Shown one piece after another: positions 11,392 to 46,794 of a DNA stretch of 53,958 nt. The notes under the pieces are model-generated. The model was not told the origin of the DNA, did no database searches, and worked only from the letters and a program-made list of their open reading frames with translations. This DNA comes from an uncultured archaeon. GTDB taxonomy: Archaea; Nanobdellota; Nanobdellia; Woesearchaeales; CAIVOO01. The position numbers and the translations under genes were made by a program. The stretch's first letter is position 1, and each line of letters starts with the position of its first letter. The stretch is taken from positions 1 to 53,958 of the forward strand of contig CAIVED010000014.1 of the NCBI GenBank assembly GCA_903904885.1, read 5' to 3'.

Positions 11392-11517
11392 ATGCAGCCA
11401 TTATCCTGGTGGACAATCGTACAGCTTGCGATTTTCATAGCTGTCTGGGTCATCATTTTCTGCGTCGGCTACATTCTCATGGTCTGGCTGAAGAAGAGGA
11501 AGATGAAAAGAAAGTGA
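11392..11517 (+). CDS. 41-aa single-pass membrane protein
   Basis: ATG at 11392 opens a 41-codon frame starting MQPLSWWTIVQLAIFIAVW. It contains one long hydrophobic helix (residues about 7-33) and ends in a strongly basic tail (KKRKMKRK). This positive-inside pattern predicts an outside N-terminus and cytoplasmic C-terminus. It starts 2 nt after the previous stop, and its TGA overlaps the GTG start of the next gene as GTGA. That double coupling is the main evidence that it is real. Function unknown; it may assemble with the membrane protein that follows. Confidence 0.7.
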   Translation: MQPLSWWTIVQLAIFIAVWVIIFCVGYILMVWLKKRKMKRK

Positions 11518-25400: not shown

Positions 25401-25989
25401 CGCCTGTCAGCGGATCTGCGAGTATTTCCATTGTCCTTCCGGAATAATTATCCGTGCAGAGGGTCTCACTCTGTCGAACAGAATAAACTAAGGATGGATT
25501 CGGGATTACTGGATTCTGGGTTAAATTGAGGCAGGAATAGGTTATTGTATAAGTATCATTCACTATGAGATTGGCTCCATAAACAGATGAGTTCGCTGTT
25601 GTAGTGTAAACGAATGTGCCGTCATATAAGGTTGCTGTGGCATTTTCAGCAGTGTATTGCCACTGGCTGTCCCCAGATACATTAAATGTCATGTTATATG
25701 TGTTATATGACGGACCAGTATGATCAAAAAAAGTTATTGTGACACTTCCTTCTGCATCGGTAATCGTCCCCCCCGTAGAATTCGTGAAGTTTGCATTAAA
25801 AGATACGGCATCGAAACGGTAGATAATGCCGCCGTCAGTGTCATCAGAAACATTCAGGAAATTGCTTCCGTCAGTAACCCCCCCGTAGCCGGTTATGCTG
25901 CCCATATTCTTGCCTGAATACAGGTTAAGGAGAAGAAAGGCGAACAGGACTATGATGACAATTAAAGCAACATTCCGAATCTGACCCAT
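22486..25989 (-). CDS. Second large beta-helix (NosD/pectate-lyase-like) surface protein
   Basis: A 1167-aa protein. I start at the ATG at 25989, preceded by GAGGTG 6 nt upstream; a TTG one codon earlier is in frame. Residues about 8-26 are a signal anchor. Most of the length from about 170 to 900 is right-handed beta-helix with rungs such as NITIQNCNFLNQGRN and SNITIINVTAYNS, very rich in N-x-S/T. A Gly/Pro/Ala-rich stalk and a membrane helix (about 1125-1147) follow, with a short basic end. It resembles the 1114-aa gene but lacks its cytoplasmic tail. It is upstream of the protease in the same direction. Carbohydrate binding is plausible; no catalytic residues were identified. Confidence 0.87.
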   Translation of the reverse strand: MGQIRNVALIVIIVLFAFLLLNLYSGKNMGSITGYGGVTDGSNFLNVSDDTDGGIIYRFDAVSFNANFTNSTGGTITDAEGSVTITFFDHTGPSYNTYNMTFNVSGDSQWQYTAENATATLYDGTFVYTTTANSSVYGANLIVNDTYTITYSCLNLTQNPVIPNPSLVYSVRQSETLCTDNYSGRTMEILADPLTGVIGSRVNDIILDCNGSTFNYSNPAFSKSGILVGWTDKNNANITIQNCNFLNQGRNAIEVRNSSNITIINVTAYNSTGGESIYVSNAAGVAIDNANLDNLNVSGGMDLYLENSRDVLVRNTNLKRTNIIADTNVTFDNLSVYDSDQEVIGGCDYSLCENITVVNSNFFNDSNTWGEVGLGRTKGMNVSNNFFNQSVPSYLGNINTLYSSSNSIFYNNTFIDSVFAMLITGDNNTVSNNNGNGLIWLETSNSVAADNDIENFPVCFYLRNSNGISLENNTCANSTNAAWAANSTAAFIGNTFLNISDSAIWVNDTNATLKGAGNYLGSGVSFVSAINSNMVIRDLAHTSNFSVPVIRLTNASLSMKNSSISGDFTSVFFANTAVYLINGPLVVYNSSIIGNANSQVYMTGGGAYSSIVNFTNNFIGIPKLDINADASADIILNGNYFNSSHIKLQGSTYITEPFRGNIFDRNSTLYLYSHNVLSNFSDNVFSNDSHIIHMSLITGSSSPLLINNTFSNIENYSAIILTSATSDPNPNSTIENNTFINVGKIAPGYYSDFAYAEYNGTNFSGCIIWTNGLAGTIFTSAGEQKVALADGSVNFGIALYNDSAGNFSSAGCGENVTIYTSGLNCGGINGLGYPGNCYYELQAVAVLANGSGKNYFWNSTLAADGIRFSEVPYLSFDNSSKSQKVWAINISSDDNKIKGNVFTGNRMSPILLNNVSGVSEPSNSKIYLNVFASGNVTNNGTGNSFCYNGNGNFYEESLAPVSGDCGQVTLGASTFTTELSFTSQSSPIQPVSYDVFYNIGAAFSILGTVTASPFTWPLNTNGLYNIKILPWITVSGTRINGTSLLAPVTKRGIAPSGGTSGGGNSVDMPPYYGKTAIAEEPSAEAPQQKPTEVVPAQPVPSAPAPVTPQVQKPAPVPVRKPLVPAWVPAVIVMVAVGVVLFSIIAYQIYLRRAKPPMFPGRPIPPSP

Positions 25990-26060
25990 CAATACACCTC
26001 GTTTTTTGTATGCCGAAAAGAGACAAGAACTGCCTCTTGAAAGTGAAAATATTTACTGGA

Positions 26061-30037: not shown

Positions 30038-31213
30038 TCATTTCTCGCAGACAACGCAGCGGCTGACAACGTTTCTAGCATCATTTTCAGTCGAATATGT
30101 CGCTGCAGCAGCGTATGCATCCTTTGCTACAACCCACCCCGCAAGGTCCACAGGGGATGAATACCAACAGCCGTCATATGTGTTGACATCAACAGCCAAT
30201 CGCGAGCATTCCGTAAACGGCAGCCTTTTAAACTTAGGAAGGCAAGAACCAGGACTGCCTAATCCCTGATCAGCAGTATAAGCTGCTCCCCAATATCCTG
30301 TTGTAAGAGCCAGGCTATAACCATCCCAAAGTTCTTTCCAACCTGCAGGACATGTAGGAGTTGTTGTTGTCTGGCTGTGCTTAACTAAAACTGCTGCCCC
30401 GACTTTTTCACAAACATTGCACTTGCTGATACCATTGGTGTCTTTTGTTATTGAAGGAGGAGGAGGATTATCAACATTAATCAGCCAGTCACTATAGTCT
30501 TGAGGAGATACATAATAACAAGTACCTGACATTTGACATTCCAACAAAAAGCCTGGCCTAAATTCGCTGACGCATGAATCAGAAGTTCCCAAGTCTGCAG
30601 TATAAACTGAGGTAAGTAAAACCGATGCTGACACCAGACTATATCCTGTCCACAAAGAATCCCAGCCAGCAGGACAATCAGGAACAGAACTGGTCTGGCT
30701 GTGCACTGCAATAACAGTTGTGCCAGGCCAACTATCTCTTAGCTCGCCACCAAGAGTTATGTTCCTGGTTACATTAAGGTTTTTAGTAGTTATATTATTC
30801 AAGACATTCAAATTCTGATTAACAGTCACATCGCTCATAAGAAGAATAGGGTAACCATCGCTGCCAGAACTAATCAACAAACCTGAGCCAACAGCATAAA
30901 AAATGAATGGAAATGTAGCTTGCCTTGTTGCGCCCCAGAAGATTCCATTATGCCCTCCATCACCCGGAAAAAATAATGTATTTGTAATATTCAAATTCCC
31001 AGGAAAACCAAAATTCCCCCCGCCAAATGCTGACCCAAAGGTTCCACTCAAAACCTTCGATGCAGAAACATTCATTATCTCATTATCACTATGGCCCATA
31101 ACCGCAGGGGTATAAGAAGACTGATAGGCAGAAACCCCAACAACAAACAGCACAGAAACAAATACAATCAAAAAAACAAAGTGCCTCTTCTCAAAATTCA
31201 AAATTACCTGCAT
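30038..31213 (-). CDS. Modular surface protein, paralogue C, with a tandem collagen IV NC1 (C4) domain
   Basis: A 391-aa protein. Residues 1-40 are the family anchor (MQVILNFEKRHFVFL), then GHSDNEIMNVSASKV, GGGNFGFPGNLNIT and NITLGGELRDSWP. Residues 171-391 are two successive C4 subdomains. Subdomain 1 has HSQTSSVPDCPAGW, LWTGYSL, SDSCVSEFRPGFLLEC, GTCYYVSPQDYSDWL and KCNVCEK. Subdomain 2 from 279 has HSQTTTTPTCPAGW, LWDGYSL, GSPGSCLPKF, PFTEC, GCWYSS and RCVVCEK. Each carries the six Cys of the animal NC1 half-domain, twelve in all, at about the family's 110-residue spacing. In animals NC1 trimerises and crosslinks collagen IV. There are no Gly-X-Y repeats here. The start at 31213 follows the TATA box; an upstream extension is read through from the methyltransferase end. 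Confidence 0.9.
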   Translation of the reverse strand: MQVILNFEKRHFVFLIVFVSVLFVVGVSAYQSSYTPAVMGHSDNEIMNVSASKVLSGTFGSAFGGGNFGFPGNLNITNTLFFPGDGGHNGIFWGATRQATFPFIFYAVGSGLLISSGSDGYPILLMSDVTVNQNLNVLNNITTKNLNVTRNITLGGELRDSWPGTTVIAVHSQTSSVPDCPAGWDSLWTGYSLVSASVLLTSVYTADLGTSDSCVSEFRPGFLLECQMSGTCYYVSPQDYSDWLINVDNPPPPSITKDTNGISKCNVCEKVGAAVLVKHSQTTTTPTCPAGWKELWDGYSLALTTGYWGAAYTADQGLGSPGSCLPKFKRLPFTECSRLAVDVNTYDGCWYSSPVDLAGWVVAKDAYAAAATYSTENDARNVVSRCVVCEK

Positions 31214-31234
31214 GGATGAATATTTTTTTATGAG

Positions 31235-31243
31235 ATTATAAAG
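31235..31243 (-). promoter_or_regulatory. TATA box for paralogue C
   Basis: Minus-strand CTTTATAAT starts 30 nt before the ATG at 31213 and lies only a few nt after the methyltransferase stop. The same stop-to-TATA junction is copied at 32838-32860. Confidence 0.65.
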
Positions 31244-31250
31244 TTTTCCC

Positions 31251-32006
31251 TCACTTCCTCGCCACAACAAGCCAGTCCCAGATTGGCTTTTCGTCGGGGA
31301 AGAATGCATCCGGATTCCCAAATGCGTCCCAGGAATAGTAAAGCTTGCTTATCCTTATTTTTTTGAATCCGGCTTTTCTCAGGCGGTATTCTATTTCAAA
31401 TTCGTAGAAGTGCTTCTGCCTGTTGCCGTCCTCGTTGATGAAGCCCAAAAGGAAATCATAGTCCTTGCTGTCGAGTATAGCCTTGGTTTTTCTGACTGCA
31501 GCCCTCGTTGGGTTTGTCTTGAGCTCCCGCTCGTAGACAAGCATCGCGGCATAGAGCGCATATTCTATTGAGGGCAGAACCCCAACCAAAACTCCCCTTT
31601 CTTTCAGGGCATCATAAATATTCCCTATCACCCGGTTAACCTGCTTCACTGACGGAGAAATTATTGAATTAACCGTAACAATGACATTAAAATGATTTTT
31701 GTAGTTCAGCCTGCGCATGTCCTTTCTCCGGTAGATGACATTCTTGAATTTGGAGTTCATTCTCTTCGCAGTATTGACCATACCTTGAGAATAGTCAGTG
31801 GAGTAAACCCTCTTGAAATTCTCAGAGAGAAACGGCACAAGCAATCCAATTCCGCAGCCGAGCTCAAGCACAGACCTTCTCTTGCTCGCAAACCTCCCTA
31901 TTGCACGCCGTATTATCCTTGCGGCATTGTCGTCAGAAAAAGGGCTCAATACATTCTCGAAATATTTCTTTTTTGTTGAGATCTCGTCCCAGGCCTTGTC
32001 TTTCAT
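31251..32006 (-). CDS. Class I SAM-dependent methyltransferase
   Basis: A 251-aa Rossmann-fold methyltransferase. Motif I is VLELGCGIGLLVPF near residues 41-54, motif II ends in VYSTDYSQGM, and the post-motif regions are NVIYRRKDMRRLNY and NVIVTVNSIISPS. The C-terminal part (FYEFEIEYRLRKAGFKKI) is a typical cap. The substrate is unknown; because it lies inside the adhesin array, a glycan, lipid or protein N-terminus at the surface is possible. Its last 15 codons, starting PDEKPIWDWLV, are copied at 32854-32901. A TATA-like box lies 34 nt upstream. Confidence 0.88.
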   Translation of the reverse strand: MKDKAWDEISTKKKYFENVLSPFSDDNAARIIRRAIGRFASKRRSVLELGCGIGLLVPFLSENFKRVYSTDYSQGMVNTAKRMNSKFKNVIYRRKDMRRLNYKNHFNVIVTVNSIISPSVKQVNRVIGNIYDALKERGVLVGVLPSIEYALYAAMLVYERELKTNPTRAAVRKTKAILDSKDYDFLLGFINEDGNRQKHFYEFEIEYRLRKAGFKKIRISKLYYSWDAFGNPDAFFPDEKPIWDWLVVARK

Positions 32007-33838: not shown

Positions 33839-33993
33839 GCGAGGGTGCCGGAGTGGTCAAACGGGATAGAAGACTAAAAGTCTGTCCAAGCTTAGGTTGA
33901 CCATGGCGTAAAGGTGTAATGAGCCCTTTCGGCTGTGATTTTGAGACACCTATTAGCTTAGTGCTTACGCAGGTTCGAATCCTGTCCCTCGCA
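33839..33993 (+). tRNA. Class II tRNA (Leu-type), interrupted by a 66-nt insert
   Basis: The acceptor stem GCGAGGG (33839-33845) pairs fully with CCCTCGC (33986-33992), followed by discriminator A. A73 fits tRNA-Leu and not archaeal tRNA-Ser, which usually has G. The D arm is CCG/CGG with the loop GAGTGGTCAAA carrying GG. The T arm is GCAGG-TTCGAAT-CCTGT. Removing 66 nt bounded by the direct repeat AGCTTAG leaves AAGC-TTAGT-GCTT as a perfect variable arm and an 89-nt tRNA. The anticodon stem ATAGA/TCTGT closes a loop of ten rather than seven bases (AGACTAAAAG), so the anticodon cannot be fixed; UAA is likely. Pseudogene or unusual processing are alternatives. Confidence 0.85.
33896..33961 (+). 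other. 66-nt intervening sequence in the tRNA variable arm
   Basis: The exact ends are ambiguous by up to 7 nt because AGCTTAG occurs at both boundaries (33889-33895 and 33955-33961). The two AGCT copies can pair with each other, each followed by a TAG, which is the geometry of an archaeal bulge-helix-bulge splice site, though the inner intron helix is weak. The insert has its own AGGTGT/ACACCT stem enclosing AGCC-CTTTC-GGCT. The direct repeat also looks like a target-site duplication. Confidence 0.6.
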
Positions 33994-33996
33994 TTC

Positions 33997-34020
33997 ATTT
34001 TTATTTTGCAGATTTTTCTT
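33997..34020 (+). terminator. T-rich terminator after the tRNA
   Basis: Runs of T (TTTTTATTTT and TTTTTCTTT) follow the tRNA end directly, as expected for archaeal intrinsic termination. Confidence 0.45.
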
Positions 34021-34204: not shown

Positions 34205-34241
34205 GGGCGATACTCTAAGTAGTCACAAAGCAGTGGTAAAA

Positions 34242-37200
34242 ATGACTGAAAAAGCAGAAGCGCTCCCACAAAACAGAGTAGAGCTAAAAACAGGAACCTA
34301 CGACATCAAAGTAGTCCGAAGGTCACCTGAAGGGCTGATTAAAGAAGACAGCCTGATAAGAATCCCAAACCAGTACGGGAAAGAAATCTCTGTGGCAATC
34401 TCCGGAAACAGGATAAGTATTGCAGACGCAGGAAGCGTAGTTCACTTAAATGAAAGAACGCTTGCTGAAAAAAATTTCAGGTCAATTCTTCTGGGCGAAA
34501 GATTCTCAATTGTTCCCCATAACCCTGAATCAATAACTGAGGTCATAGACCAAACCTTGCAGACAACCGCTGAAATTTCTCCCGGCCTTGAATACAATCC
34601 TACGAGATACCTGCAAAGCGTTCTTGAAGAACTGGACATACTTGAGCATGTTCAGGAGAAAGACCTCAGGGACATCAACAAAATTGCAGCAGCAGCCTTT
34701 CTCATGGACACATTGGGCTATTTCAGGGTTGAGAAGCAAATAGACCCGTTCACTGGAGAAACATTGCCCGATGAAGAAAAAGAAATTTCACGAACACCCG
34801 AAGAACTGCGTGTGATTTCCCAGAAAATAAAGTGCGACTACAAAACAGTCGCAGACACATTCGAACAGATAAAAAAAATAAGGCAAGCCACAAGGCACTC
34901 AAAAGGCAATCCGGAGAGAGTTATTGAGAGCCTTAAAAAACCTGAGAAGGAGAGAACAAACAAGCTGGCAAGATTTGACCTTGCATTTGGCCTTCCGTAC
35001 ATTGCCATCGCATACAATGACCTGTTCGGCAAAAGCGCGGCATTTGAATTCCTGACCTCCTATTTTGGGGAAGACATCAGGAAAGAGTATGAGCTTGAGG
35101 GGAGATTAAAGCAGGCGCTGACCGGCAGCGGCGCAGTATTCAAAACCCCCACCCAGGAGGAAGTTGAAAAAGCAATAGAAATCCATACTAGCTACAACCG
35201 GCTGAAAGAAAAGCTCGGGAAAGAGCTTCCAAAAAGGATAATTGAAGCAAATCTCAACGAGATGGAACTCCTTACAGGGCTGCATTTCTACAGGGATACG
35301 ATAATAATTGACCCCACAGACACTCTCCCTTTAATTTCAGAGTATGAGGTGATTGAAAGAACGCACAAATCTGAAAGCGGGGAAAAAACAAAGACCAGGC
35401 ATTACTTCCTGAAAGGCAAAGAAATTTCGCTTGCAAGGGCTGAGGGGAAAACAAGATATTTCAATTACAAAAAACGGATAAAAGAAGAGGTATCATCCCA
35501 AAAAGAGATAAGTGAAAAACCTGTTCTGCTTGAATTTGAAGAAGAGGTTCGGGGATGCACCAAAAAGACGGTCAGAAAAGACTACCTGGCCATTGCTCCG
35601 GGAGAAGATTCAGTCGAACAGGTAAATGCGGCATTCCAAACAGCAAAAGAAGAATCCGAAAAAGGGAGAAAAATCAAAGTTTACCTTTACGGAGATGAAA
35701 TCGAGGAAACAAAGCAGCTTAGGATTCTTGCAGAACATCCGTCTGCAATTGATGCAGTAGCTGTCCTTAAAAAAAGCGGGGATTTTGGTAAAATAGGGAT
35801 TCTTGATGTTGGTGAAATCGGAAACGGCATTGAAGAGAGAATAAATTTTAATGACATTTTCCTGTTTGCAAAATACGGCATCGCCCCCCGAAGGGAATTT
35901 CAGGCCTCAGAGGCAGGCCTGCTTTCAAAATTGGAAAAGATGGTCAATGAGCAGCACGAATTTGAAATTAAACCGGACAACCAGATAAAGTATCATATAA
36001 GCATAGGGAGCCTCAGGCTCGGAGAGATACTGCTGCCGGAAAATATCACAATTGAAACATTAACCAGGATGAACCTTCTGGAAGCGCTGTCCAAGCAAAA
36101 AACTGAGAAAGAGGATTCTGCAGAAAGATTGAAAGCTGACAAGTTCATAGAACTATATGACCTGATGCCTGAAGAATTCAAAATGCCAAACCAGGACATT
36201 GAGGCAATCCAATACCTAATCGATTTGGAAAGGGAGCACAGCGAGCCAGCAAGCCCAAAGATATCTGCGGGAGAAAACCCGACGCCGATAGAAGAAACAA
36301 AAGTAAGCCCAAAGATATTTGTAGGCGAAGACCTGGCTTTGATAGAAGAAACAAGAAAAAGCCTTGAGGGAAAAGCCCATAAGGCATCGATACGGTTCAT
36401 AGATGCCCAAAGAGAAAACAAAAAAAGGTATATTGTAAAAAGAAAAACTCTTGGCTCAGAAGCGGGGTATGAAGACCTGGGGGTTATCACAACAAACAAT
36501 GACATTTCCAGAATTAACAGGCTTTCGCTTAACCAATACGGGAGCATTTCTGGGGCAGAGAGAGAAGACCTGGTTAGCCTGACCAAGGCAAAATTCACGG
36601 GAATAGAATATTCCCCGGAAAACGGCGGCGTGTGGATTGAAAAAAGGGAAAGGCTTGAACAGGTTGTTGAAAAGTTCTATCAGATAATTGGCAAAACCGC
36701 TGAAGAGATGGGGATAGACCTTACTTTCATAAGGATTACCGACCGGGCGAGAAAAAGATTCCATGACCAGCTGCTTGACAACTACCAGGACAAAATCCTG
36801 GATAAGGATGAAAAAGCCAGTTTGGACAAAGAAATGAAATTGCTCGGGATAAATCCGGACCAGGTAAGAAAAATGTTTTTTCATACAGAATACCTGCTGG
36901 AGAGGGGGCTTATGGAACCAACTCTCAGCCTGCTTGCAGGTTTTGTTGAGGATTCGCACCTGGACCTTATTGAAGGCGCCTTAACCGAATGGTACATCAA
37001 GATGCTTGAAGCAGAAAACATAAACAAAGACCTGCTGGCGTTCATCAATGCAAGGGCAAGAAATTCCGTAGACACAATTGCGCATGCCTCGCCGGAAATT
37101 CAAACCATGCTGAAGTATGTTGAAAACAGCATAATACGGGACAACAGAAGCAAAGAAGACGATAAAAAACTGCTTAAAGCGCTCGCATTGCTTGAGATAC

Positions 37201-37994
37201 CTCCGCACCAGAAAGAAGATGCTTATACCACTATGAGAACGGACTATGAAGCATTTGCAACGGATTTCTCTGCAAGGGTCGTTCATATCCCAAATGCGGG
37301 AGAGAGCGTTCCCCAGGCAAGGTTTTTCAAATTTTATCACACTACAAAGGATGGGATTAAGCAAAGGGCAAACCAGCTGGGGGATGTTGCAAATAAGCTG
37401 GTTCCTATTGAAAAGGTTTTTTACAACAGCATATTTTTCGGGCTGGGAGAGGAGGATATAGCAAAGTATGTCCAGGCAATGGTAGGGTTGGATAAAGATA
37501 CAAGAAAAATGATTGTTTCAAACATGTCAACCTATGCTGACAGCCAGGATTTAATGAAGAGATACAGAGGGAGATTCCTGAGAGAACTAAATGAAAAAAT
37601 CCTTAGCGAGGAAACAATGAAATTTGTAACGCACCACAACGTGATTGGCCATGCTCTTGAATTTATGGACAATGCTATTGACAGCGTAATACCTTCTGAA
37701 GATGGAGAAACCACTCCTAATGGCCCGGCAATTCCTGTAAAAAAATCAAAGGATGCCATAATGCCTGCCATAGTGGAACAGGTTTTTGAGCTGAAAAAAA
37801 GGCTGTTTGATGAATACACCCGTGAAGATGAAGAAGAAAAAAGGACAAACGGAGCAGAAGAAAAAACAGAAAACCCATCGCTGAACATAACTGATGAAGA
37901 TTGGAATAACACGTTCGGAGAAGAAAACGGAGCTGTGGAACCGCAAAAGGAACCTCCAAAAGATGAAACTGATTTCGGCGATTTAAATGATTAA
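34242..37994 (+). CDS. Very large soluble protein of unknown function
   Basis: A 1250-aa protein with no signal peptide, no membrane segment and almost no Cys, so it is cytoplasmic. I start at ATG 34242; GTG 34233 is in frame. A beta-rich N-terminus (residues about 10-75) is followed by long helical regions, a central alpha/beta part near 440-620, two copies of an 18-residue repeat at about 671-706, and a helical second half. The C-terminal 60 residues are acidic and disordered (DEDWNNTFGEENG). I find no P-loop, nuclease or protease motif. It precedes the pilin-signal protein and the 2262-aa protein on the same strand, but with a separate promoter for the pair. Function unknown. Confidence 0.85.
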   Translation: MTEKAEALPQNRVELKTGTYDIKVVRRSPEGLIKEDSLIRIPNQYGKEISVAISGNRISIADAGSVVHLNERTLAEKNFRSILLGERFSIVPHNPESITEVIDQTLQTTAEISPGLEYNPTRYLQSVLEELDILEHVQEKDLRDINKIAAAAFLMDTLGYFRVEKQIDPFTGETLPDEEKEISRTPEELRVISQKIKCDYKTVADTFEQIKKIRQATRHSKGNPERVIESLKKPEKERTNKLARFDLAFGLPYIAIAYNDLFGKSAAFEFLTSYFGEDIRKEYELEGRLKQALTGSGAVFKTPTQEEVEKAIEIHTSYNRLKEKLGKELPKRIIEANLNEMELLTGLHFYRDTIIIDPTDTLPLISEYEVIERTHKSESGEKTKTRHYFLKGKEISLARAEGKTRYFNYKKRIKEEVSSQKEISEKPVLLEFEEEVRGCTKKTVRKDYLAIAPGEDSVEQVNAAFQTAKEESEKGRKIKVYLYGDEIEETKQLRILAEHPSAIDAVAVLKKSGDFGKIGILDVGEIGNGIEERINFNDIFLFAKYGIAPRREFQASEAGLLSKLEKMVNEQHEFEIKPDNQIKYHISIGSLRLGEILLPENITIETLTRMNLLEALSKQKTEKEDSAERLKADKFIELYDLMPEEFKMPNQDIEAIQYLIDLEREHSEPASPKISAGENPTPIEETKVSPKIFVGEDLALIEETRKSLEGKAHKASIRFIDAQRENKKRYIVKRKTLGSEAGYEDLGVITTNNDISRINRLSLNQYGSISGAEREDLVSLTKAKFTGIEYSPENGGVWIEKRERLEQVVEKFYQIIGKTAEEMGIDLTFIRITDRARKRFHDQLLDNYQDKILDKDEKASLDKEMKLLGINPDQVRKMFFHTEYLLERGLMEPTLSLLAGFVEDSHLDLIEGALTEWYIKMLEAENINKDLLAFINARARNSVDTIAHASPEIQTMLKYVENSIIRDNRSKEDDKKLLKALALLEIPPHQKEDAYTTMRTDYEAFATDFSARVVHIPNAGESVPQARFFKFYHTTKDGIKQRANQLGDVANKLVPIEKVFYNSIFFGLGEEDIAKYVQAMVGLDKDTRKMIVSNMSTYADSQDLMKRYRGRFLRELNEKILSEETMKFVTHHNVIGHALEFMDNAIDSVIPSEDGETTPNGPAIPVKKSKDAIMPAIVEQVFELKKRLFDEYTREDEEEKRTNGAEEKTENPSLNITDEDWNNTFGEENGAVEPQKEPPKDETDFGDLND
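36252..36359 (+). repeat. Tandem 54-bp repeat inside the 1250-aa gene
   Basis: Two adjacent 54-bp units encode SPKISAGENPTPIEETKV and SPKIFVGEDLALIEETRK. They are in frame, so the protein gains 18 residues in a linker between its two halves. Confidence 0.75.
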
Positions 37995-38063: not shown

Positions 38064-40013
38064 ATGAAAAAAAGGGGCCAAATTACAGTTTTCATAGTTA
38101 TAGGCATTATTGTGCTTCTTTTAATTGCGATTGTCTTCTTTTTCAGGGGGGAGCAGGCAGGGCTCCAGCCGAAAAAGCCCATTGAGCAGAAACTCGGGCC
38201 GGTTGAGCAGTACATCCAGTCCTGCGTTGAAAGCATATCAACCGATGCAGTCGAGCAGATGGGCCAAAAGGGGGGATATGTTTACACCCCAACCGAGCTT
38301 GAAAATTATGTAGAGGCTCACATCATTGAGGACCGGCTTGGCCTCCTGAAAGTCCCGATGTGGTACTACAAGGACAAGACCTATATGCCTTCAATTGACG
38401 AAATGCAGTACCAGATTTCCCTTTACCTGAACAATTCAATTAAAAAATGCCTTGCTGATTTTGAGCCCCTGAAAAATGAATACCAAATCAGCGAGACAGG
38501 CAATCCTGTTTTCACGGTAACAATTGCAGACGAGGACGTTGTTATTGAAACCGAATACCCCCTGGATGTTACCCTGAAGGCGAGAAATGAACAATACAAA
38601 GTTAATAAATTCTCAACACTGATCCCCGTGAGGCTGAAGAGAGTGTATTCACTTGCAAAAGCTATTTTTGAAAGTGAAAACAGCAACAACTTCCTTGAGA
38701 ACCTAACACTCCAGCTTATGACCATGAACCCCGCAATACCCTTCACAGGCATGGAATTCAGGTGCGGCAACAGGATATGGAGCGTTATCGGCATAGAAAA
38801 TGAGGTAAAAGAAGAGATTGCCACAAACATCCAGCGAATAAGGTTCAAGAACACAAACTACATCCCATTCCTCGAGCCGGAAAGCGAGTACAAGAAATTC
38901 ATCGGGCTCAAGCTTGACCCGCAGACAGGTGAGATACTGAATCTTCCGAAGAGGGATCCGCCTGTTGACTTGTATGAATATGCGCATTTCTTTTTTGATG
39001 TCACTCCGGATGATTACAAAGACCTCACAGTGGATACCATATTTTACAGGGAATGGCCTCTGGCATTGGCAGCAATCCCAAGCGAAGCGGGCCTGCTCAG
39101 GTCAGAAGAGCTGGGCAACATTGAACTTCTGAAATTCCTGTGCATTGAGATGTGGCATTTTATCTACGACCTTTCATACAATGTTGAATTCGCGGTAAGG
39201 GATGACCAGTCATTCGGCGGCAAGGGATACACTTTCAAGTTCGCAACTCCGGTAATAATAAAGCATGACCGGGCCATGAAGCTTCCATTGTCAGCGAGGG
39301 CGTTCATCAGCCCTGCCATATCATCCGGCATCTGCGCAAATGCAGGCACAGGCCCCATGGAAATAAGGGCCTATGACAAGGTTACAAGGGAGGAACTTTC
39401 GGGCGTTAACATAACATACAAATGCCTGAACCAGGTCTGCAATCTCGGGAAGACAAGGGCAGACTTCGGCGTGAACAGGCTGAGGACATCACTGCCCGCA
39501 GGATGCGGCAACCCCCAGATAATCGCGGAAGCAGACAGCTACATTGCAGGCCAGACCTATGCGCCGCAGACCGGCAAGGTGGAAATCCCGATGGTGCCCC
39601 TCAAGAAATATTCTTTCAATGTCATGAAGATACTGTCCATAAACAAGGAGGAGACAGCCCTGCTTCCGGATGAGGTTGTCCTGATAACCCTCAAAAACAA
39701 GGACTACAATTACGAGGAGAGCATAATGTTCCCGGACATAACGGGAGGCAACCTTTCAGAGCTAAACTTAATATATGACAGCACAACATACCAGATGGAC
39801 ATGTTCATCTCAAAAGGGGACAATTACGTTGGCGGCTGGACAGGCAGCTGGACAGTTTCCGCAAAGGACCTGTTTGACACGGACTTCATAAATTTCAGGG
39901 CCTATGAAAAAATACCATACCCTTCATCGGACGAGGAAATTATAGGGATGCTTACAGAGGTGGGCCAGGAATCCCAAAATTATCCGCCCCAGTTTGGAGT
40001 AAAAAATGAATAA
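38064..40013 (+). CDS. Extracellular protein with a class III (pilin-like) signal
   Basis: A 649-aa protein. MKKRGQITVFIVIGIIVLLL matches the type IV pilin/archaellin signal, where a FlaK/PibD-type peptidase cuts after the basic K/R-G and the hydrophobic stretch stays as the assembly helix. Here the helix spans residues about 7-28. The remaining 620 residues are far longer than a pilin and look mixed alpha/beta, with Cys at about 56 and 133, near FRCGNR, and CIEMWHF; then ICANAGTGP and a beta-sandwich C-terminal third (ISAGVNITYKC-like strands near 440-460). The stop overlaps the next ATG by 8 nt, so it is coupled to the 2262-aa secreted gene. A minor-pilin-like anchor for that protein is an inference. 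Confidence 0.8.
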   Translation: MKKRGQITVFIVIGIIVLLLIAIVFFFRGEQAGLQPKKPIEQKLGPVEQYIQSCVESISTDAVEQMGQKGGYVYTPTELENYVEAHIIEDRLGLLKVPMWYYKDKTYMPSIDEMQYQISLYLNNSIKKCLADFEPLKNEYQISETGNPVFTVTIADEDVVIETEYPLDVTLKARNEQYKVNKFSTLIPVRLKRVYSLAKAIFESENSNNFLENLTLQLMTMNPAIPFTGMEFRCGNRIWSVIGIENEVKEEIATNIQRIRFKNTNYIPFLEPESEYKKFIGLKLDPQTGEILNLPKRDPPVDLYEYAHFFFDVTPDDYKDLTVDTIFYREWPLALAAIPSEAGLLRSEELGNIELLKFLCIEMWHFIYDLSYNVEFAVRDDQSFGGKGYTFKFATPVIIKHDRAMKLPLSARAFISPAISSGICANAGTGPMEIRAYDKVTREELSGVNITYKCLNQVCNLGKTRADFGVNRLRTSLPAGCGNPQIIAEADSYIAGQTYAPQTGKVEIPMVPLKKYSFNVMKILSINKEETALLPDEVVLITLKNKDYNYEESIMFPDITGGNLSELNLIYDSTTYQMDMFISKGDNYVGGWTGSWTVSAKDLFDTDFINFRAYEKIPYPSSDEEIIGMLTEVGQESQNYPPQFGVKNE

Positions 40014-43000
40014 GCCGCTGATTGCATTGTTCATGTCGGCAATCATAATACTGACCACGGTTTACACAGCGCAGGCTCTGCAGATAACCTTCAATCCCTC
40101 GCTGTCAAATGTAACCCACAATTCTGCATTGATAGCCTGGCAGACAGACGCGCCGGCAAATTCAACGCTGGCCTACTGGAACGCAGCAGGCAATGCAACA
40201 AACGAAACAATAACACTTTCAGAAGCAAACCTAACGCTGAATCATTCCTATACTCTTGCGGGGCTTAATGCAACCACGGCCTACAGGTACTGGTTTGCGT
40301 CCTCATCGCTTAATGAAACCGGGGTAATGAACAACTCGAATAATTTTTATGATTTCACAACCCTGAACATAACCCCTGTTGCGCTTTTCATAAACGCAAC
40401 AATACCCCTGAATTACAACAGCCCGAGGCTTACAATTTCAGGGACAACTTCCCCGAATGCGCTTGTCCACGCCTACGCAAACCCTGACCCGTCGAGGGTT
40501 GGCATTTCCTTTTACGACAGGGAGACATTTGCCGACGAAAACGGCAATTTCACTGTCTACGAGCTTCCGCTGGATGCCTCGAGGACCAACAACACAGTTG
40601 TTCTCTGGGCAAGGGACGATAAGGGGAACACAACATCAATTTCAGGACAGGTGCATCTTGACCTTATCCCCGCGAATGTTTCATATTTCATCCCGCCGAC
40701 CACAAGAACCGGCAGCATAAACATCAGCGGAACAACCAACGAGAACATAACTATCGAGATCTACGCCGGCGCCTTTGTCAACGGCACCGCTCCTGTGCTT
40801 AATGAAACAAACCTTGCCCTCAACCAGACAGTCATCCTTGCCAACGGAACAAACACAACACCTTTCCTATTCAATATTGCAATGCCCGGCGACAAAAACC
40901 TTGTCCTGTTCAACGCAAGGGACCTGGGCGGAAATCTGATAACCAGCAACGCTACAGTAATCTCTGACACAATCCCTCCGACATTCGAAGTGCCCACAAG
41001 CCTTGATGCCTACAGCCCGACATATACGCTTGGCGTTGAGATAGAAGGAAAAATTTCAGAGGCAGGGAAAGTCATTGCATTTGTAAACGGCGACCAGCAG
41101 GTCACTGAAAAAACAGATGAAAACGGAAAGTTCAAGATAACAGTAACCCTGCAAAAAGCGGTCATAAACAAGGTCAATGATTCAAAATTCACAGCAGCCT
41201 ACGGCTCGTTCATAAACCAGACTTACATTGACACCTATCCAAATTTTGTCACGCTTATGGCAGTCGACCAGGTCGGCAACACCCAAAACCTTACAGGAAC
41301 GATAACCTACACACCCTGCGGATTTGGCACATGGTGGAGCGTGAATGAGGGAAGAAACCCCCAGGACTATGTCATGCCAACCATGCTTTCGCCCCAGATG
41401 CTTCTTGACGGCAATGCGCAGATTTCATACAGCTACATACTGAAGTGGCAGGGTTTCGGCAATTACACATTTGTTTCCTCAAACGTGAAGCTGGCCCCGC
41501 TTAGCCAGATATACAAGGACAAGTTTGATGCAGACTGGGTTTCCGGGGTTTCAACCACTTCTCCCGACGGAAAAATAGGCTACTCCGTGGTAAAGCTTAT
41601 GGCCCCGGGCTTCAATGAAAACAAGAACCTGACCTACCGGGAAAAATTAAGGAGAATAAGCGAGCATAGGATGACATCCGGGGGCTCTGCAGGAAAAATA
41701 ACCCCTGTGGGCGGCGCAAGCCCGAGCATTCAGTACGAGCCCTCAGGCAACTGCCTGATACCGCACGTAGGATGCGTAAAAGTCCCGCTTATACTTGAGA
41801 TACAGTTTGAATCAGCAGAATTTTCCAATTCCAGCGTCAGGCAGCAGACCCAGAAGGTATGCAATTTTGTTGAGGTCACTGTTGACGGCTCAATGTTTTC
41901 CATGGGAGACATACCGAGCGAATACCTCAAGAGGATGATAGCCTTCATGGAAAACATGATAGCGAACATAGAGCCTGTTGAGAAATTCCTAAAGGACACA
42001 GAAAAGATTATGCTTTACCTCTATGCCGCAGCCATAATTGGCCTCTGGTTTGTGAAATTCGGGGAGATGTTCAAATGCAAATTCTCGAAATACTTCAGCC
42101 AGGGATTCAAGGACGCTGATGCCATGCAGAACTGCTACAGGGAAGACAATACAAAAATTCCGGCATCCTACAGCAGCACCGATACAAAAAAGGAATTCAA
42201 CCAGCTGGCATGCAATTCCTGCGCAGATGCCATAAGCGCAAGAATAACATATTTGAGGTTCATGAATGCCCTCGGAGACCGGCTGTTCATGCCGTCTGTG
42301 CCGACGCTGCAAACATACATCAAGGGCGACTCAAAGAATAAGCTCCCCGGCAACTGGAAAAACAAATACTCCTGGTGCTACGGCGGAGCTGACGCATCCA
42401 ACCCAATTGGCCTGGGTGCGAGCAATTATGTTGAAATGGCCCAGATAGCCAAGCCATACCTGAAGGATACTGCAATCTGCCCTGACCTCCACATAATAAA
42501 CACAGAAGCAGTAAACAGCATATCAAACAAGCAAAGCAGCAAATTCTACAGATGCTGCGCAGCAGAATACTACCGGGAGTGGAGAAGCGGCTGCGCACTG
42601 CTTGACCCTCTTGAAGAGTCAGCCTGCGAAGCAGATGAGGCGCAATATGCAACAACAGGAAAAAAGCTTATACAGCCCGGCGAACTGACTACAAAATTAA
42701 AATGCCATACTGCCTGGAATGCAGTTGCGGGATTCTGCGACCCCCAGAGCGGCTACGTGCCTGCGCTTGTCTCGACAAACTGGATATGGAAAGACACAAC
42801 AGCTACGGGAAAAATCATAGGAAGCATTGCCGACACGAAGAAAGCATTTTTCCTTGTGGCGCCTGATTTGGGCGGCGAGAGCGGGCTGCCAAGCGTGACG
42901 AGGGCAACAGGAATTGGGCCTTCCACCAAGGGGGCCGATACATTGTCAATAGGATACATAGGGGTTGAAGCAAAAGTAGCTTCCATAACTGGAAGCACGC

Positions 43001-46000
43001 CAAGCGCCGACCAAAAGAAAACAACAGATCCCTCTCTCAGCAGCATGACAAAAGACCTTGGGACTAACATGGCTGCCTGGCAGGGTGGAAGCCCCTACCC
43101 AATTCAGTCAGGAACGGTTTACTATCCTTATTATCTAGGGGTAAACAATTGGAACTGGATTGAAGGTAATCTCTTTGACCCTTCGGTTGACTGCAACCAG
43201 TGCCTCAAGAGCGGAATTTCAGCATTGCCAAGCGCTCCTGCCGCGCCAAGCGGTGGCCCATGCGACAAGTTCAATGCATTCAAGGACAAGATAAACAGCC
43301 TAGCAAAAGACGGGATACTAGACTGGTCGCTTATGTACAACTCACAGCCCCTGAAAGACCAAGAAACCTGCAGGGTTTACAATGACATACGCTCAAAGAT
43401 GGGCATAAAAGACAAGGACTACATTATCGACCCTTCACAGCCAAACTTTTTCAGGAGCATACAGTGCATCGCAATCCCTTCAATCATCTCGCACCTTTCA
43501 ATGATGAAGAGAATTTTCACCGCGCTTAAGCAGTGCTTCCAGATAACCCTGACCACGGGGGATTCCAGCCCGACAGTTTGCAGGGATTTGCTGTCACGGC
43601 AGGTCTGCGATTTCGTATTCGAAGCGCTGAAATGCTTCACCAACAAATACAGCCTCGGCTACGGAGGGGGCAGAGAGGGAATTATCGGAAGCATAAGCAG
43701 TGTTTTCGGCGCCATGACAAGCGCAGGGGCAAGTGTTGCAAACAGCCTGCAGTCAAGATACGGCGGGGATAAATTATTCTATTCAATATTCGGGGAAAAC
43801 CGCCTGATTAATGCGATATGCATTTTCGCATTCACAGGTGAATGGATATTTGACCTTAATGCCCTAGTAGACCAGGACTTCCCGATTAACATAAACTCAA
43901 CAGTCCTGATAACCCCCGCTGAAAGGAGATTTGTATCTGCAAATCCGCTAAGCACCCCTTCGGGATTTGCATTTTACAATTACAAAATAGGAGTTGCAAT
44001 GATTGCCGGCTCAGACCTCACCTATGATGTCCAGCTGATATGCTCCAATGACTATTCCTGCTCTCCTGTTAACGGTTATGAGGGGGGAAAATGCGACTGC
44101 GTTGACGCCCATGGCGGTCAGCCGGACGTCAGGCATTTCCCGCTTACAGCATCCCCTTCGCTTTCAGCAGGGGAGGCTCTTGGCGAGGGCGGCAGGGGAA
44201 CTGTGCAGTATACCCAGTTTGAAATGCCGTACAGGTATGACAAGGTAAAAGTCCTATGGAGATGGAAGCCGTCGCCAACCACCGCAGTAAAAGAAGACTC
44301 CATGACCGTCCCGATAAAAGAAGTCGGCGGAACGCCTCCTGCAATCTGCAAATTCAGGGCAGACTTCAAGATGTTCCTGTGCGACCTGGGATTCAGCTCG
44401 GCCTACGTCATATTGCAGAGCGTTATCCCTTCCCAGCCGACATTTTACGTGGGGGACAGGGTGCAGCTGAGGTCAACAATACTGCAGAACATACCAAAGG
44501 AGGCAGAAATAGCGTGCCAGCAGAACCAATGCAATTACACAACATTCCTCCAGGTTAAGTTCACCAGGGCCAGCGACGGGAGATTGATGTGCCAGGAGCC
44601 GCCGTTAAAGGTTCCGCTTTATTCCACAACAACCTTAGGGTTTGAAACAGCCCCATCCCCAATTGATTTCCCGACAAACTGCGTATTGGGCTCAGGCATG
44701 TTTGACACCACTGCAACATCCTGGCAGCCCCATGCAATTTTAGGCTCAATAGACATACAGCCAAACCTAAGGAGCGTAAGCTCCCAGGGAGACTACATGA
44801 TTATTGCGGCAAAAACAGGGAGCAGCATCAATTATCATATCTGCAGGATAACCCCTGAGGAATTCCAGTACAACCGGTTCTCTGTTTCAAGCAACTTTTA
44901 CAATGAAAAAAGCTGCAAGCCGCTTGGCACGGGCCTAACCAGCATCACCGCAGACAACGGAGCCATATTTGACATAAGAACACAGCCCTCCCCATTACCG
45001 GGTTCCTGCAGCATAACCGTAATGCAGGGCAGCGCAATAAGCGGAGCTCCGGGAACAATGAACCTGTGCAACCAGATAGCCGGCACTGAAGGGATTTCAG
45101 CAATAACTGTTGAAGCCAAACAGGAAGGTGCAACAAGCATAAGCGGCGAGAGCATCTGGAACTGGGAGGCAACACTTCTCAAGATTGACCTCACCGCAGA
45201 CCCCAACAGCGGCATGCAGATAGTCGGGGCAGGGGCGTCCTCGCAGATTGTTGTTGCAAACGGAGTGCCCCAGAGAAAAACAGGAACACTTCTTGTGCGA
45301 AATGTTCAAAGCACATCGCCTGAGGCTGTAAAGCCTCCTCAGCCAACAGCAGCAGTTACTCTGCCAGCCACCATAACATCCAATGGAGAGAATTGCGCAG
45401 TTGATACCACTGGGGCAGAAATTAAGGTATCCTGCGGCAGCAATGTTTATTATTTTGGCAAAGCTACAAAAATGCCGTCAGCCTATTCAACAGACAGCGG
45501 CAAAACAAGGCATGAGTTCAATATTGAGCCTGTTGAGGTTTCTGCTGAGGAAAAAGCAGCCATGACAAGAGCATCGCAAATATCCAGCCAGCTCCTGGCG
45601 CAGCCAGCAGCTGCTGGGCCATCGCCGGCAGCAACTCCTCCTGCAGCACCAACTGCACCTGTCGCTGCTGAAATGGCAACAATAGGCACGAGTTCGGATC
45701 TCGATGCAATTAAAACGCAAAATATTCCTACTGTGATTTACGTCTCTGGAACCGACTGCTCGCTATGTACGGAGTTTAGTTCAAAAATCTGGCCAACCCT
45801 GACAAAAGAAACATTCTGCACAAAGGTGAAAATGGCAGAGGTCAAAAAAACAACGAGCGCAGGCAATGCTCTCATGGTGCAATTGCAAGCCGCAGGCATA
45901 AAATTCCAGGGCACCCCAAGCGGTTTCTTATTATATGGCAGCAATACGCCAATAGAAATCAAAAAGCTGTGGGACCAGGGAATCAGCGAAAGCGCAGTTA

Positions 46001-46794
46001 AAAATGAAATAGACAGCATCCTCAAAGACAACTTAAAATTATGCACGGCAGCCGCAAACACTCCCGCAGGAACGCCTGCAGCACCCGCTGCCGGCGAAAA
46101 TCTCGACTGCAGCAACAGCGCAAATGATGGCAAGGGCCCCTGCACAAGGACAGACAACAGCGCCTATTCCTGCAATACAGGCACTGCAGACTACCCAAGC
46201 CTGTGCGTCTGCCATAACAAGGAATGCGTTTCAAAATGCTCCTACTGCTCCAGCGGGGGAAAAGCCTTTGACTGCGACGGAATAAAGTCCGGCTGGCAAT
46301 GCACATTAGAAGACTGCCCTTCAGGAAGCACAAACTGCGCAAGAGGTTTCTGCCCGCAGTCTGACATGTACTGTGGGGTTGCGACCCAATCTCAACAAGC
46401 ACAACCAACAGAAAAAGCCATACAGTCCATTAGCGTCGAGAAAACAGCAAACTTCCTGCTTTTCAAAGTTAAAACAACATCCGATGTTCAAAAAGTTTTT
46501 GAGTATATAAGGCCATGCCAGACAGTCATAGGAGGCACTGGCGGCTCATTGATTGATAAAGTAAGCTCAGGAAACTTTGCATACACATTTAATTGCCAGC
46601 CGGGCAATTGCATTCCAAACGGGCAGGCTTACAGCGGAACTCAAGGTTCATGTAACTACATTTTCTTCTCAGCTAAGCTAGACTCTGTGGCTATTGATCC
46701 CGGGGCCTATGAATACATATGCCGATGCAACACGGCAAATAAATGCAGCCAACCTACAGACTGGACATGCTTTTCTAATGTTGTACAGGGATAA
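40006..46794 (+). CDS. 2262-aa secreted Cys-rich surface protein with FN3-like and thioredoxin-like domains
   Basis: A signal peptide (MNKPLIALFMSAIIILTTVYTAQA) is followed by a fibronectin III-like domain (residues about 27-120, TAYRYWFASSS) and further Ig-like domains to about 470. A hydrophobic helix occurs near 667-685 (IMLYLYAAAIIGLWFVKFG). The middle 1000 residues hold many Cys in pairs such as CNSCADA, CDCVDAH and YRCCAAEYY. An Ala/Pro linker leads to a thioredoxin-like domain at about 1905-2012 with a CSLC active-site pair at Cys1918 and Cys1921, then a Cys-knot-like region (KCSYCSSGGKAFDCDG) and a final beta domain. It overlaps the pilin-signal gene by 8 nt. It probably folds outside with many disulfides and could catalyse their formation. 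No known family for the whole. Confidence 0.87.
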   Translation: MNKPLIALFMSAIIILTTVYTAQALQITFNPSLSNVTHNSALIAWQTDAPANSTLAYWNAAGNATNETITLSEANLTLNHSYTLAGLNATTAYRYWFASSSLNETGVMNNSNNFYDFTTLNITPVALFINATIPLNYNSPRLTISGTTSPNALVHAYANPDPSRVGISFYDRETFADENGNFTVYELPLDASRTNNTVVLWARDDKGNTTSISGQVHLDLIPANVSYFIPPTTRTGSINISGTTNENITIEIYAGAFVNGTAPVLNETNLALNQTVILANGTNTTPFLFNIAMPGDKNLVLFNARDLGGNLITSNATVISDTIPPTFEVPTSLDAYSPTYTLGVEIEGKISEAGKVIAFVNGDQQVTEKTDENGKFKITVTLQKAVINKVNDSKFTAAYGSFINQTYIDTYPNFVTLMAVDQVGNTQNLTGTITYTPCGFGTWWSVNEGRNPQDYVMPTMLSPQMLLDGNAQISYSYILKWQGFGNYTFVSSNVKLAPLSQIYKDKFDADWVSGVSTTSPDGKIGYSVVKLMAPGFNENKNLTYREKLRRISEHRMTSGGSAGKITPVGGASPSIQYEPSGNCLIPHVGCVKVPLILEIQFESAEFSNSSVRQQTQKVCNFVEVTVDGSMFSMGDIPSEYLKRMIAFMENMIANIEPVEKFLKDTEKIMLYLYAAAIIGLWFVKFGEMFKCKFSKYFSQGFKDADAMQNCYREDNTKIPASYSSTDTKKEFNQLACNSCADAISARITYLRFMNALGDRLFMPSVPTLQTYIKGDSKNKLPGNWKNKYSWCYGGADASNPIGLGASNYVEMAQIAKPYLKDTAICPDLHIINTEAVNSISNKQSSKFYRCCAAEYYREWRSGCALLDPLEESACEADEAQYATTGKKLIQPGELTTKLKCHTAWNAVAGFCDPQSGYVPALVSTNWIWKDTTATGKIIGSIADTKKAFFLVAPDLGGESGLPSVTRATGIGPSTKGADTLSIGYIGVEAKVASITGSTPSADQKKTTDPSLSSMTKDLGTNMAAWQGGSPYPIQSGTVYYPYYLGVNNWNWIEGNLFDPSVDCNQCLKSGISALPSAPAAPSGGPCDKFNAFKDKINSLAKDGILDWSLMYNSQPLKDQETCRVYNDIRSKMGIKDKDYIIDPSQPNFFRSIQCIAIPSIISHLSMMKRIFTALKQCFQITLTTGDSSPTVCRDLLSRQVCDFVFEALKCFTNKYSLGYGGGREGIIGSISSVFGAMTSAGASVANSLQSRYGGDKLFYSIFGENRLINAICIFAFTGEWIFDLNALVDQDFPININSTVLITPAERRFVSANPLSTPSGFAFYNYKIGVAMIAGSDLTYDVQLICSNDYSCSPVNGYEGGKCDCVDAHGGQPDVRHFPLTASPSLSAGEALGEGGRGTVQYTQFEMPYRYDKVKVLWRWKPSPTTAVKEDSMTVPIKEVGGTPPAICKFRADFKMFLCDLGFSSAYVILQSVIPSQPTFYVGDRVQLRSTILQNIPKEAEIACQQNQCNYTTFLQVKFTRASDGRLMCQEPPLKVPLYSTTTLGFETAPSPIDFPTNCVLGSGMFDTTATSWQPHAILGSIDIQPNLRSVSSQGDYMIIAAKTGSSINYHICRITPEEFQYNRFSVSSNFYNEKSCKPLGTGLTSITADNGAIFDIRTQPSPLPGSCSITVMQGSAISGAPGTMNLCNQIAGTEGISAITVEAKQEGATSISGESIWNWEATLLKIDLTADPNSGMQIVGAGASSQIVVANGVPQRKTGTLLVRNVQSTSPEAVKPPQPTAAVTLPATITSNGENCAVDTTGAEIKVSCGSNVYYFGKATKMPSAYSTDSGKTRHEFNIEPVEVSAEEKAAMTRASQISSQLLAQPAAAGPSPAATPPAAPTAPVAAEMATIGTSSDLDAIKTQNIPTVIYVSGTDCSLCTEFSSKIWPTLTKETFCTKVKMAEVKKTTSAGNALMVQLQAAGIKFQGTPSGFLLYGSNTPIEIKKLWDQGISESAVKNEIDSILKDNLKLCTAAANTPAGTPAAPAAGENLDCSNSANDGKGPCTRTDNSAYSCNTGTADYPSLCVCHNKECVSKCSYCSSGGKAFDCDGIKSGWQCTLEDCPSGSTNCARGFCPQSDMYCGVATQSQQAQPTEKAIQSISVEKTANFLLFKVKTTSDVQKVFEYIRPCQTVIGGTGGSLIDKVSSGNFAYTFNCQPGNCIPNGQAYSGTQGSCNYIFFSAKLDSVAIDPGAYEYICRCNTANKCSQPTDWTCFSNVVQG

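What the first reader, a model, noticed from the sequence alone, without database searches (positions are those of the whole stretch)
38064..46794. Pilin-signal protein coupled to a 2262-aa secreted protein
A 649-aa protein with a type IV pilin signal overlaps the start of a huge Cys-rich protein with FN3-like, thioredoxin-like and knot-like regions. The pair could form a previously undescribed surface apparatus for contact with a host. The upstream 1250-aa soluble gene may be part of it.
Basis: inference. Interest (0 to 1): 0.7.

Follow-up and report, generated by a model that had tools for sequence, protein, structure and literature searches.

The report
Pilin-like anchor with giant secreted partner
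Nearly all sampled Woesearchaeota-type archaea carry a pilin-like membrane protein whose gene is followed by the gene of a giant secreted protein, and in some relatives that giant protein carries enzymes that cut bacterial cell walls, so the pair looks like a contact tool for touching or attacking other cells.

Summary
The pair is real and widely conserved. P649 (38064-40013) has a textbook class III (prepilin-type) signal. P2262 (40006-46794) overlaps it by 8 bases and has a Sec-type signal, FN3/Ig-like repeats rich in N-glycosylation sequons, and a Cys-rich core. In 35 of 37 unnamed relatives' loci the next gene is a P2262 relative; in 70 of 72 named Woesearchaeota/Nanoarchaeota loci a same-strand gene follows, usually giant. 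The P649 N-domain occurs in 243 of 279 genomes of the phylum, an A24 prepilin peptidase in 268 of 279. The window's genome has 11 such N-domain genes, 8 with a secreted partner. The upstream 1253-aa gene is not part: it was found in none of 59 relatives. The thioredoxin-like and knot-like stretches are not conserved. New here: partners in the second, divergent group carry murein hydrolases in 9 of 18, and one partner in the window's own genome carries a lytic transglycosylase. Best reading: a minor-pilin adaptor plus exchangeable tip protein for cell contact. Filament assembly, interaction and target are inferred. P2262 itself has no detected hydrolase.

The parts
38064..40013 (+). P649: class III-signal (pilin-like) protein, 649 aa
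   Evidence: ORF; relatives (58 of 60 genomes with any match); AlphaFold mean pLDDT 89.9
38064..38162 (+). Class III signal MKKRG|QITVF and hydrophobic N-terminal helix (residues 1-33)
   Evidence: Site letters nearly invariant in 67 relatives; helix 4-33 in the model
38175..38867 (+). Conserved N-domain (about residues 38-268), shared with 10 other genes of the same genome
   Evidence: Alignment A4, own-genome search, 243 of 279 genomes
39342..39602 (+). CnaB/transthyretin-like beta-sandwich (residues 427-513) of the ectodomain
   Evidence: VIA Z 8 to 10 over 75-84 residues against carboxypeptidase regulatory, CnaB and SpaA pilin domains; Foldseek best E 1.8e-5, SpaA
40006..40013 (+). 8-base overlap of the two genes (probable translational coupling)
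   Evidence: a 4-base overlap is the commonest spacing in relatives: 15 of 36, 30 of 70
40006..46794 (+). P2262: giant secreted Cys-rich partner, 2262 aa
   Evidence: ORF; 26-member alignment A2
40093..40371 (+). FN3-like domain (residues 30-122)
   Evidence: Profile hits to PDB FN3 domains; Pfam fn3 in 11 of 26 members
40408..41325 (+). Ig-like repeats (residues 135-440), rich in N-glycosylation sequons together with the FN3 part
   Evidence: Profile hits to Bap and SiiE-type Ig domains; 26 sequons in residues 1-440 against 9.4 in shuffles
43453..44505 (+). Most conserved Cys-rich core (residues 1150-1500), shared with the second group of partners
   Evidence: Invariant Cys 1177, 1192, 1201, 1272, 1363, 1448, 1459; hhalign probability 96.4 to second group; no known fold found
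44596..46791 (+). Variable C-terminal part (residues 1531-2262) with the poorly conserved thioredoxin-like and Cys-dense stretches
   Evidence: Occupancy and conservation fall after about residue 1530
34233..37994 (+). Upstream 1253-aa gene: judged NOT part of the module
   Evidence: Match in 1 of 60 genomes, its own; no Pfam match at E<=0.1

Best explanation
P649 and P2262 form a two-gene module. P649 is exported, cut after Gly by the A24 prepilin peptidase and held in the membrane or in a type IV pilus-like assembly by its N-terminal helix. Its 600-aa ectodomain (N-domain plus CnaB-like stalk) carries the co-translated giant P2262 at the cell surface. P2262 uses its conserved Cys-rich core to dock and stabilise, and exposes glycosylated FN3/Ig repeats and a variable tail. 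The genome holds several such modules, so the machine probably presents exchangeable tips: adhesive ones such as P2262, and wall-cutting ones with lytic transglycosylase. Shown: gene order, signals, domain content, conservation, presence of peptidase, ATPase and TadC genes, hydrolase domains in other partners. Inferred: processing, physical interaction of the two proteins, docking on a filament, contact with another cell.
For: Conserved coupling: next gene is a P2262 relative in 35 of 37 loci and a same-strand gene in 70 of 72 named loci, >=800 aa in 64. Nearly invariant class III site. A24 peptidase in own genome, 57 of 60 relatives, 268 of 279 in the phylum. Secretion ATPase G000:C12:33941 beside two TadC/T2SSF genes C12:31055 and 31796. 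Modularity: 11 N-domain genes in the genome, 8 followed by a secreted partner. Variable ends and conserved core. Murein hydrolases in 9 of 18 second-group partners and in an own-genome partner (SLT, E 5e-15). The other SLT gene of the genome has a class III-like start and lies in a run of class III-like genes. Ectodomain related in fold to pilus-stalk CnaB domains.
Against: No ATPase, TadC or small major pilin gene lies in the window next to the pair. A canonical pilin fold was not shown for P649. P2262 itself and the 22 + 26 first-group partners scanned show no SLT; only one borderline VanY (E 9e-4). Of the 60 best SLT hits in the phylum, 49 are not beside an N-domain gene. A24 does not discriminate: by comparing the lists it occurs in 235 of 243 genomes with the N-domain and 33 of 36 without. 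Near-universality also fits a housekeeping envelope role. No complex prediction was possible.
Confidence: 0.5

Rival explanations
1. The pair is a constitutive structural part of the cell envelope (S-layer-like coat or surface scaffold): P649 is a membrane anchor and P2262 the outer glycoprotein, with no filament and no special contact role.
For: Near-universal presence (243 of 279 genomes for the N-domain); strong sequon excess in residues 1-440 (26 against 9.4); Ig-like repeats; one fold match of the P649 beta-sandwich is the S-layer protein SlaB (Z 9.3).
Against: Class III site kept almost letter by letter, although any hydrophobic anchor would do; several paralogous pairs per genome with different partners; murein hydrolases in some partners; only moderate overall conservation (17-38% identity).
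Confidence: 0.25
2. A pseudopilus-type secretion or conjugation-like device: P649-type proteins build a short piston that exports P2262-type effectors, which are released rather than displayed.
For: Class III signals, ATPase and TadC in the genome; partners with free-standing enzyme-like domains (SLT, amidase, glucosaminidase, GDSL, metallophosphatase).
Against: Partners carry their own Sec-type signals and so need no extra exporter in a one-membrane cell; conserved core and coupling fit a bound complex better.
Confidence: 0.15
3. The coupling is operonic convenience only: an archaeal adhesin or envelope maintenance pair without functional contact between the products.
For: No interaction evidence of any kind was obtained; neighbouring genes differ among genomes.
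Against: The order is kept in almost every genome while all other neighbours change, with 4-base overlaps the commonest spacing.
Confidence: 0.1

Closest known systems
Archaeal type IV pili and minor pilins (census PMC4858521, passages read)
   Same: Class III signal, A24 peptidase, T2SSE ATPase and TadC in the genome; that census also describes large S-layer-like or adhesin proteins and Cys-rich components beside some archaeal T4P loci.
   Different: P649 is 649 aa with a bulky ectodomain, no motor genes are beside it, and its regular neighbour is a giant multi-domain protein. 'DPANN', 'Woesearchaeota' and 'Pacearchaeota' do not occur in that paper's main text, 'Nanoarchaeota' once.
Myxococcus Kil (Tad) pilus with interchangeable minor-pilin Tips (PMC12075869, passages read)
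   Same: Several paralogous clusters in one genome, each a pilin-like set exposing a variable, disulfide-rich end domain; linked to killing of bacteria.
   Different: Bacterial; the Tip proteins themselves are pilins, whereas here the giant partner has a Sec-type signal. No homology shown.
SPEARE proteins of Nanohaloarchaeota (PMC6642349, passages read)
   Same: Very long surface proteins of DPANN archaea with adhesion domains, proposed for host contact.
   Different: SPEARE proteins carry protease and restriction-enzyme domains and mostly a C-terminal membrane anchor, and the passages read do not describe a paired class III-signal gene; none of those domains was found in P2262.
Archaeal peptidoglycan hydrolases, including Woesearchaeota (PMC12352652, PMC9723730, passages read)
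   Same: Murein-cutting domains in these archaea are already in print. PMC9723730 mentions an analogue of the lytic transglycosylase gene in genome AR20; L115 is AR20 and its SLT lies in a P649-type partner (probably the same gene, not verified).
   Different: The passages read do not link them to a pilin-like gene; 'pilin' has 0 occurrences in PMC12352652 and 'pili' 0 in PMC9723730.

Membership tests
Type IV pilin / archaeal T4P system | Class III signal [K/R][G/A/S]| followed by a hydrophobic helix | tested here: met
   67 of 67 at -2 and -1, Q at +1 in 66 of 67
Type IV pilin / archaeal T4P system | A24 prepilin peptidase in the genome | tested here: met
   PF06847 absent in own genome
Type IV pilin / archaeal T4P system | Secretion ATPase (PF00437) and TadC (PF00482) | tested here: met
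   G000:C12:33941, C12:31055 and 31796; on another contig than the window, and PF00437 also matches other VirB11-type ATPases
Type IV pilin / archaeal T4P system | Pilin fold: long N-terminal helix packed on a beta-sheet head | tested here: inconclusive
   Model has N-terminal helix 4-33 and helix 42-68; matches cover mainly 427-592
Type IV pilin / archaeal T4P system | Assembly into a filament | not testable with these tools
   -
Interchangeable pilus tips (Kil-like) | Paralogous modules in one genome with variable end domains | tested here: met
   11 N-domain genes, 8 with secreted partners of different content
Interchangeable pilus tips (Kil-like) | Tip subunit itself bears a pilin-type helix | tested here: not met
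   P2262-type partners start with Sec-like signals; only the P649 side has the class III signal
Interchangeable pilus tips (Kil-like) | Located at a filament end and needed for contact | not testable with these tools
   -
SPEARE proteins | Serine protease, laminin-G and restriction-enzyme domains | tested here: not met
   No such Pfam match in P2262 at E<=0.1
Murein hydrolase (for P2262 itself) | Recognisable hydrolase domain | tested here: not met
   present in other partners

The most novel reading that the evidence does not exclude
A phylum-wide contact weapon of the nanoarchaeal (Woesearchaeota/Pacearchaeota-type) lineages: class III-anchored adaptors present exchangeable giant tips, some adhesive (FN3/Ig) and some carrying lytic transglycosylase, amidase or glucosaminidase, so that many of these host-dependent archaea bind and open murein-walled bacteria. 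The partner genes would then predict, genome by genome, whether the host or prey is a bacterium.
Probability: 0.3. Interest if true: 0.88.

Novelty: new variant of a known kind. Interest (0 to 1): 0.72.

Why it matters
How the uncultured Woesearchaeota and Pacearchaeota touch other cells, and which cells, is open. This module is one of their widely shared surface gene pairs, has no Pfam or NCBIfam name for P649, and gives defined targets (P649 cleavage, P649-P2262 binding, antibody or tag imaging). The murein hydrolases in related partners point to bacteria as targets in at least part of the phylum. The papers read report such hydrolases in these archaea; no passage read, and none of the listings, connects them with a pilin-like gene.

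Tried and rejected
Upstream 1253-aa gene as a member: rejected. Thioredoxin and knot regions as conserved parts: rejected. Linking all SLT domains of the phylum to the module: rejected as a general rule. Of the 60 best SLT hits, 7 are direct partners (one resting on a 17.6-bit match), 4 lie within three genes (one at 17.3 bits) and 49 are neither. Ten of those 60 loci were then printed, picked because their SLT gene or neighbours looked interesting; by eye 8 of 10 (L165, L166, L167, L185, L188, L194, L200, L218) lie in runs of small class III-like genes. A simple automatic count of class III-like starts did not separate SLT loci (132 of 938 genes) from pair loci (174 of 1164), so this second pattern is a lead only. 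Co-occurrence of A24 with the N-domain was tried as a test and does not discriminate, because both are nearly universal. Fold search of the P2262 core (430-1530): model confidence moderate (mean pLDDT 67.7), no Foldseek match at E<=0.001, best VIA Z 6.8; no conclusion about its fold. Pfam and NCBIfam named neither P649 nor P1253. PDB sequence search with the P649 profile: nothing at E<=1; with P2262 residues 1-438 as a single sequence: nothing at E<=0.01, so FN3/Ig rests on the family profile. In sequence clustering polytopic membrane proteins of about 250-310 aa (9 and 7 loci) and the second-pair partner of about 1000-1360 aa (14 loci) recur near the pair in relatives but are not in the window. 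A complex prediction of the two proteins was not possible with the tools.
Full report
What is there. The window belongs to a 1.31 Mb genome in 44 contigs, 98.7% complete. ORF calls confirm P649 (38064-40013) and P2262 (40006-46794) on the + strand with an 8-base overlap. Pfam and NCBIfam give no accepted family for P649 or the upstream P1253, and only below-cut-off FN3-like matches for P2262.

Conservation of the pair. P649 finds relatives in 58 of 60 genomes, 11 matches in its own. Around 37 P649-type genes of unnamed relatives, the next gene is on the same strand in 36 and belongs to the P2262 cluster in 35; one contig ends, and in one the downstream gene is a 110-aa fragment at a contig end. 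In the named collection 72 loci were returned. In 70 the next gene is on the same strand and in 2 the contig ends. 64 of the 70 following genes are >=800 aa, the rest being mostly cut by contig ends, with one split P649 and one split partner. 30 of 70 overlap by exactly 4 bases. These two sets overlap in genomes. 45 of 70 followers are recognised by the P2262 profile. Most of the remainder form a second, divergent group (L115-L144), whose core aligns to the first group by profile comparison (probability 96.4, E 1.4e-9, 230 columns).

The signal. In 67 full-length P649-type proteins the site reads [K/R][G/A/S]|Q-x-[T/S]-x-[F/Y]: -2 K/R 67, -1 G/A/S 67, +1 Q 66, +3 T/S 64, +5 F/Y 67. Five further candidates were left out before this count because the expression missed their start; three of them visibly carry such a site. 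A mere membrane anchor would not need this. The A24 peptidase is in the own genome, 57 of 60 relatives and 268 of 279 phylum genomes; the N-domain is in 243 of 279. Because both are nearly universal, their co-occurrence proves nothing: comparing the lists, A24 is present in 235 of 243 genomes with and 33 of 36 without the N-domain. A secretion ATPase and two TadC-type genes lie together on another contig.

Anatomy. AlphaFold gives P649 a confident model (mean pLDDT 89.9, pTM 0.64, 56 sequences): N-terminal helix 4-33, helix 42-68, then mixed alpha/beta, then beta-sandwiches. Residues 427-513 resemble CnaB/transthyretin-type domains (Z 8-10 over 75-84 residues), including the SpaA shaft pilin. 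P2262 has FN3- and Ig-like repeats at its N-terminus by family profile, 26 sequons in residues 1-440 against 9.4 expected from shuffles and only 5 in the remaining 1822 residues against 15, a Cys-rich core with invariant cysteines, and a weakly conserved remainder. The core model is of moderate quality and matches nothing convincingly.

Modules and hydrolases. The genome holds 11 genes with the N-domain (leaving out one 16.5-bit match at C14:11535 and counting two rows on C4 as one gene). Eight are followed directly by a gene with a secretion-type signal: 2262, 1188, 724, 694, 1204, 655, 695 and 2466 aa. The 694-aa partner has a lytic transglycosylase (SLT) domain, E 5e-15. The only other SLT gene of the genome, on C4, starts with a class III-like segment and sits in a run of small class III-like genes. 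In the second group 9 of 18 full-length partners carry murein hydrolase domains: SLT in eight and a glucosaminidase-type domain in one, taken to be L139. The two Amidase_3 hits, the NlpC/P60 hit and the phage-lysozyme hit must lie in these same nine, since the other nine show none. Of those other nine, L124 has metallophosphatase, GDSL and a below-cut-off 3D match, and L135 a metallophosphatase. The AR20 genome (L115, titled complete genome) makes binning error unlikely for at least that case. First-group partners, the type in the window, show FN3/Ig domains and no SLT in 26 + 22 scanned; one borderline VanY. Against a general rule, 49 of the 60 best SLT hits in the phylum are not beside an N-domain gene.

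Interpretation. The best-supported mechanism is a pilin-type adaptor (P649) that presents a giant, partly exchangeable outer protein (P2262) at the surface. What it works like: minor pilins with tip proteins, as in the Myxococcus Kil pilus with interchangeable tips (PMC12075869, passages). Whether it is a member: signal, peptidase and motor genes are met, pilin fold is inconclusive, filament assembly untestable, and the giant partner, unlike a Kil tip, has no pilin helix of its own. The function for P2262 itself is most likely adhesive; wall cutting belongs to sister modules. An envelope-scaffold role remains a serious rival.

Literature. Passages were read in PMC4858521, PMC12352652, PMC9723730, PMC12075869, PMC6642349 and PMC9938205. 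Peptidoglycan hydrolases in Nanoarchaeota and Woesearchaeota are in print; their coupling to a class III-signal gene was not met in those passages nor in the listings. Only open-licence papers are held, so this is not proof of absence.

Noticed in passing
30041-31321 (-): A 427-aa ORF carries two collagen IV NC1 (C4) domains: Pfam E 1.8e-53, and PDB matches to animal collagen IV chains including Drosophila Viking, single-chain E about 1e-33. Very unusual on an archaeal contig; gene transfer, convergence or assembly origin not examined.
   Followed up: partly
L227:256-10280 (G000:C4:34255-44279): Run of small class III-like genes ending in a 438-aa protein with an SLT domain and a class III-like start; similar runs by eye in L165, L166, L167, L185, L188, L194, L200, L218. 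Looks like a pilus-type locus with a murein hydrolase.
   Followed up: partly
L071:6121-11954: Second paralogous pair of the genome (757 aa plus 1188 aa, 4-base overlap); in many relatives such a pair lies just upstream of the P649-P2262 pair (partner cluster in 14 loci).
   Followed up: partly
L155:6543-17161 (G000:C4): A 1037-aa class III-signal protein followed by a 2466-aa secreted protein with carboxypeptidase-regulatory and SpaA-like domains.
   Followed up: no
11409-12554 (+): 381-aa ORF with a weak (16.5 bits, E 0.0045) match to the class III-signal part of the N-domain profile.
   Followed up: no
about 33840-34000 (+): Sequence that looks by eye like a tRNA-Leu gene, possibly with an intron, upstream of P1253; ARAGORN reported no tRNA in the window.
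   Followed up: no
3999-7340 (-) and 22489-25992 (-): Two large ORFs with right-handed beta-helix matches (the first below cut-off), possibly further surface proteins.
   Followed up: no
L124:5461-14145 and L135:4586-12199: Giant partners with a calcineurin-like phosphoesterase after the N-terminal part; L124 also has a GDSL lipase domain.
   Followed up: no
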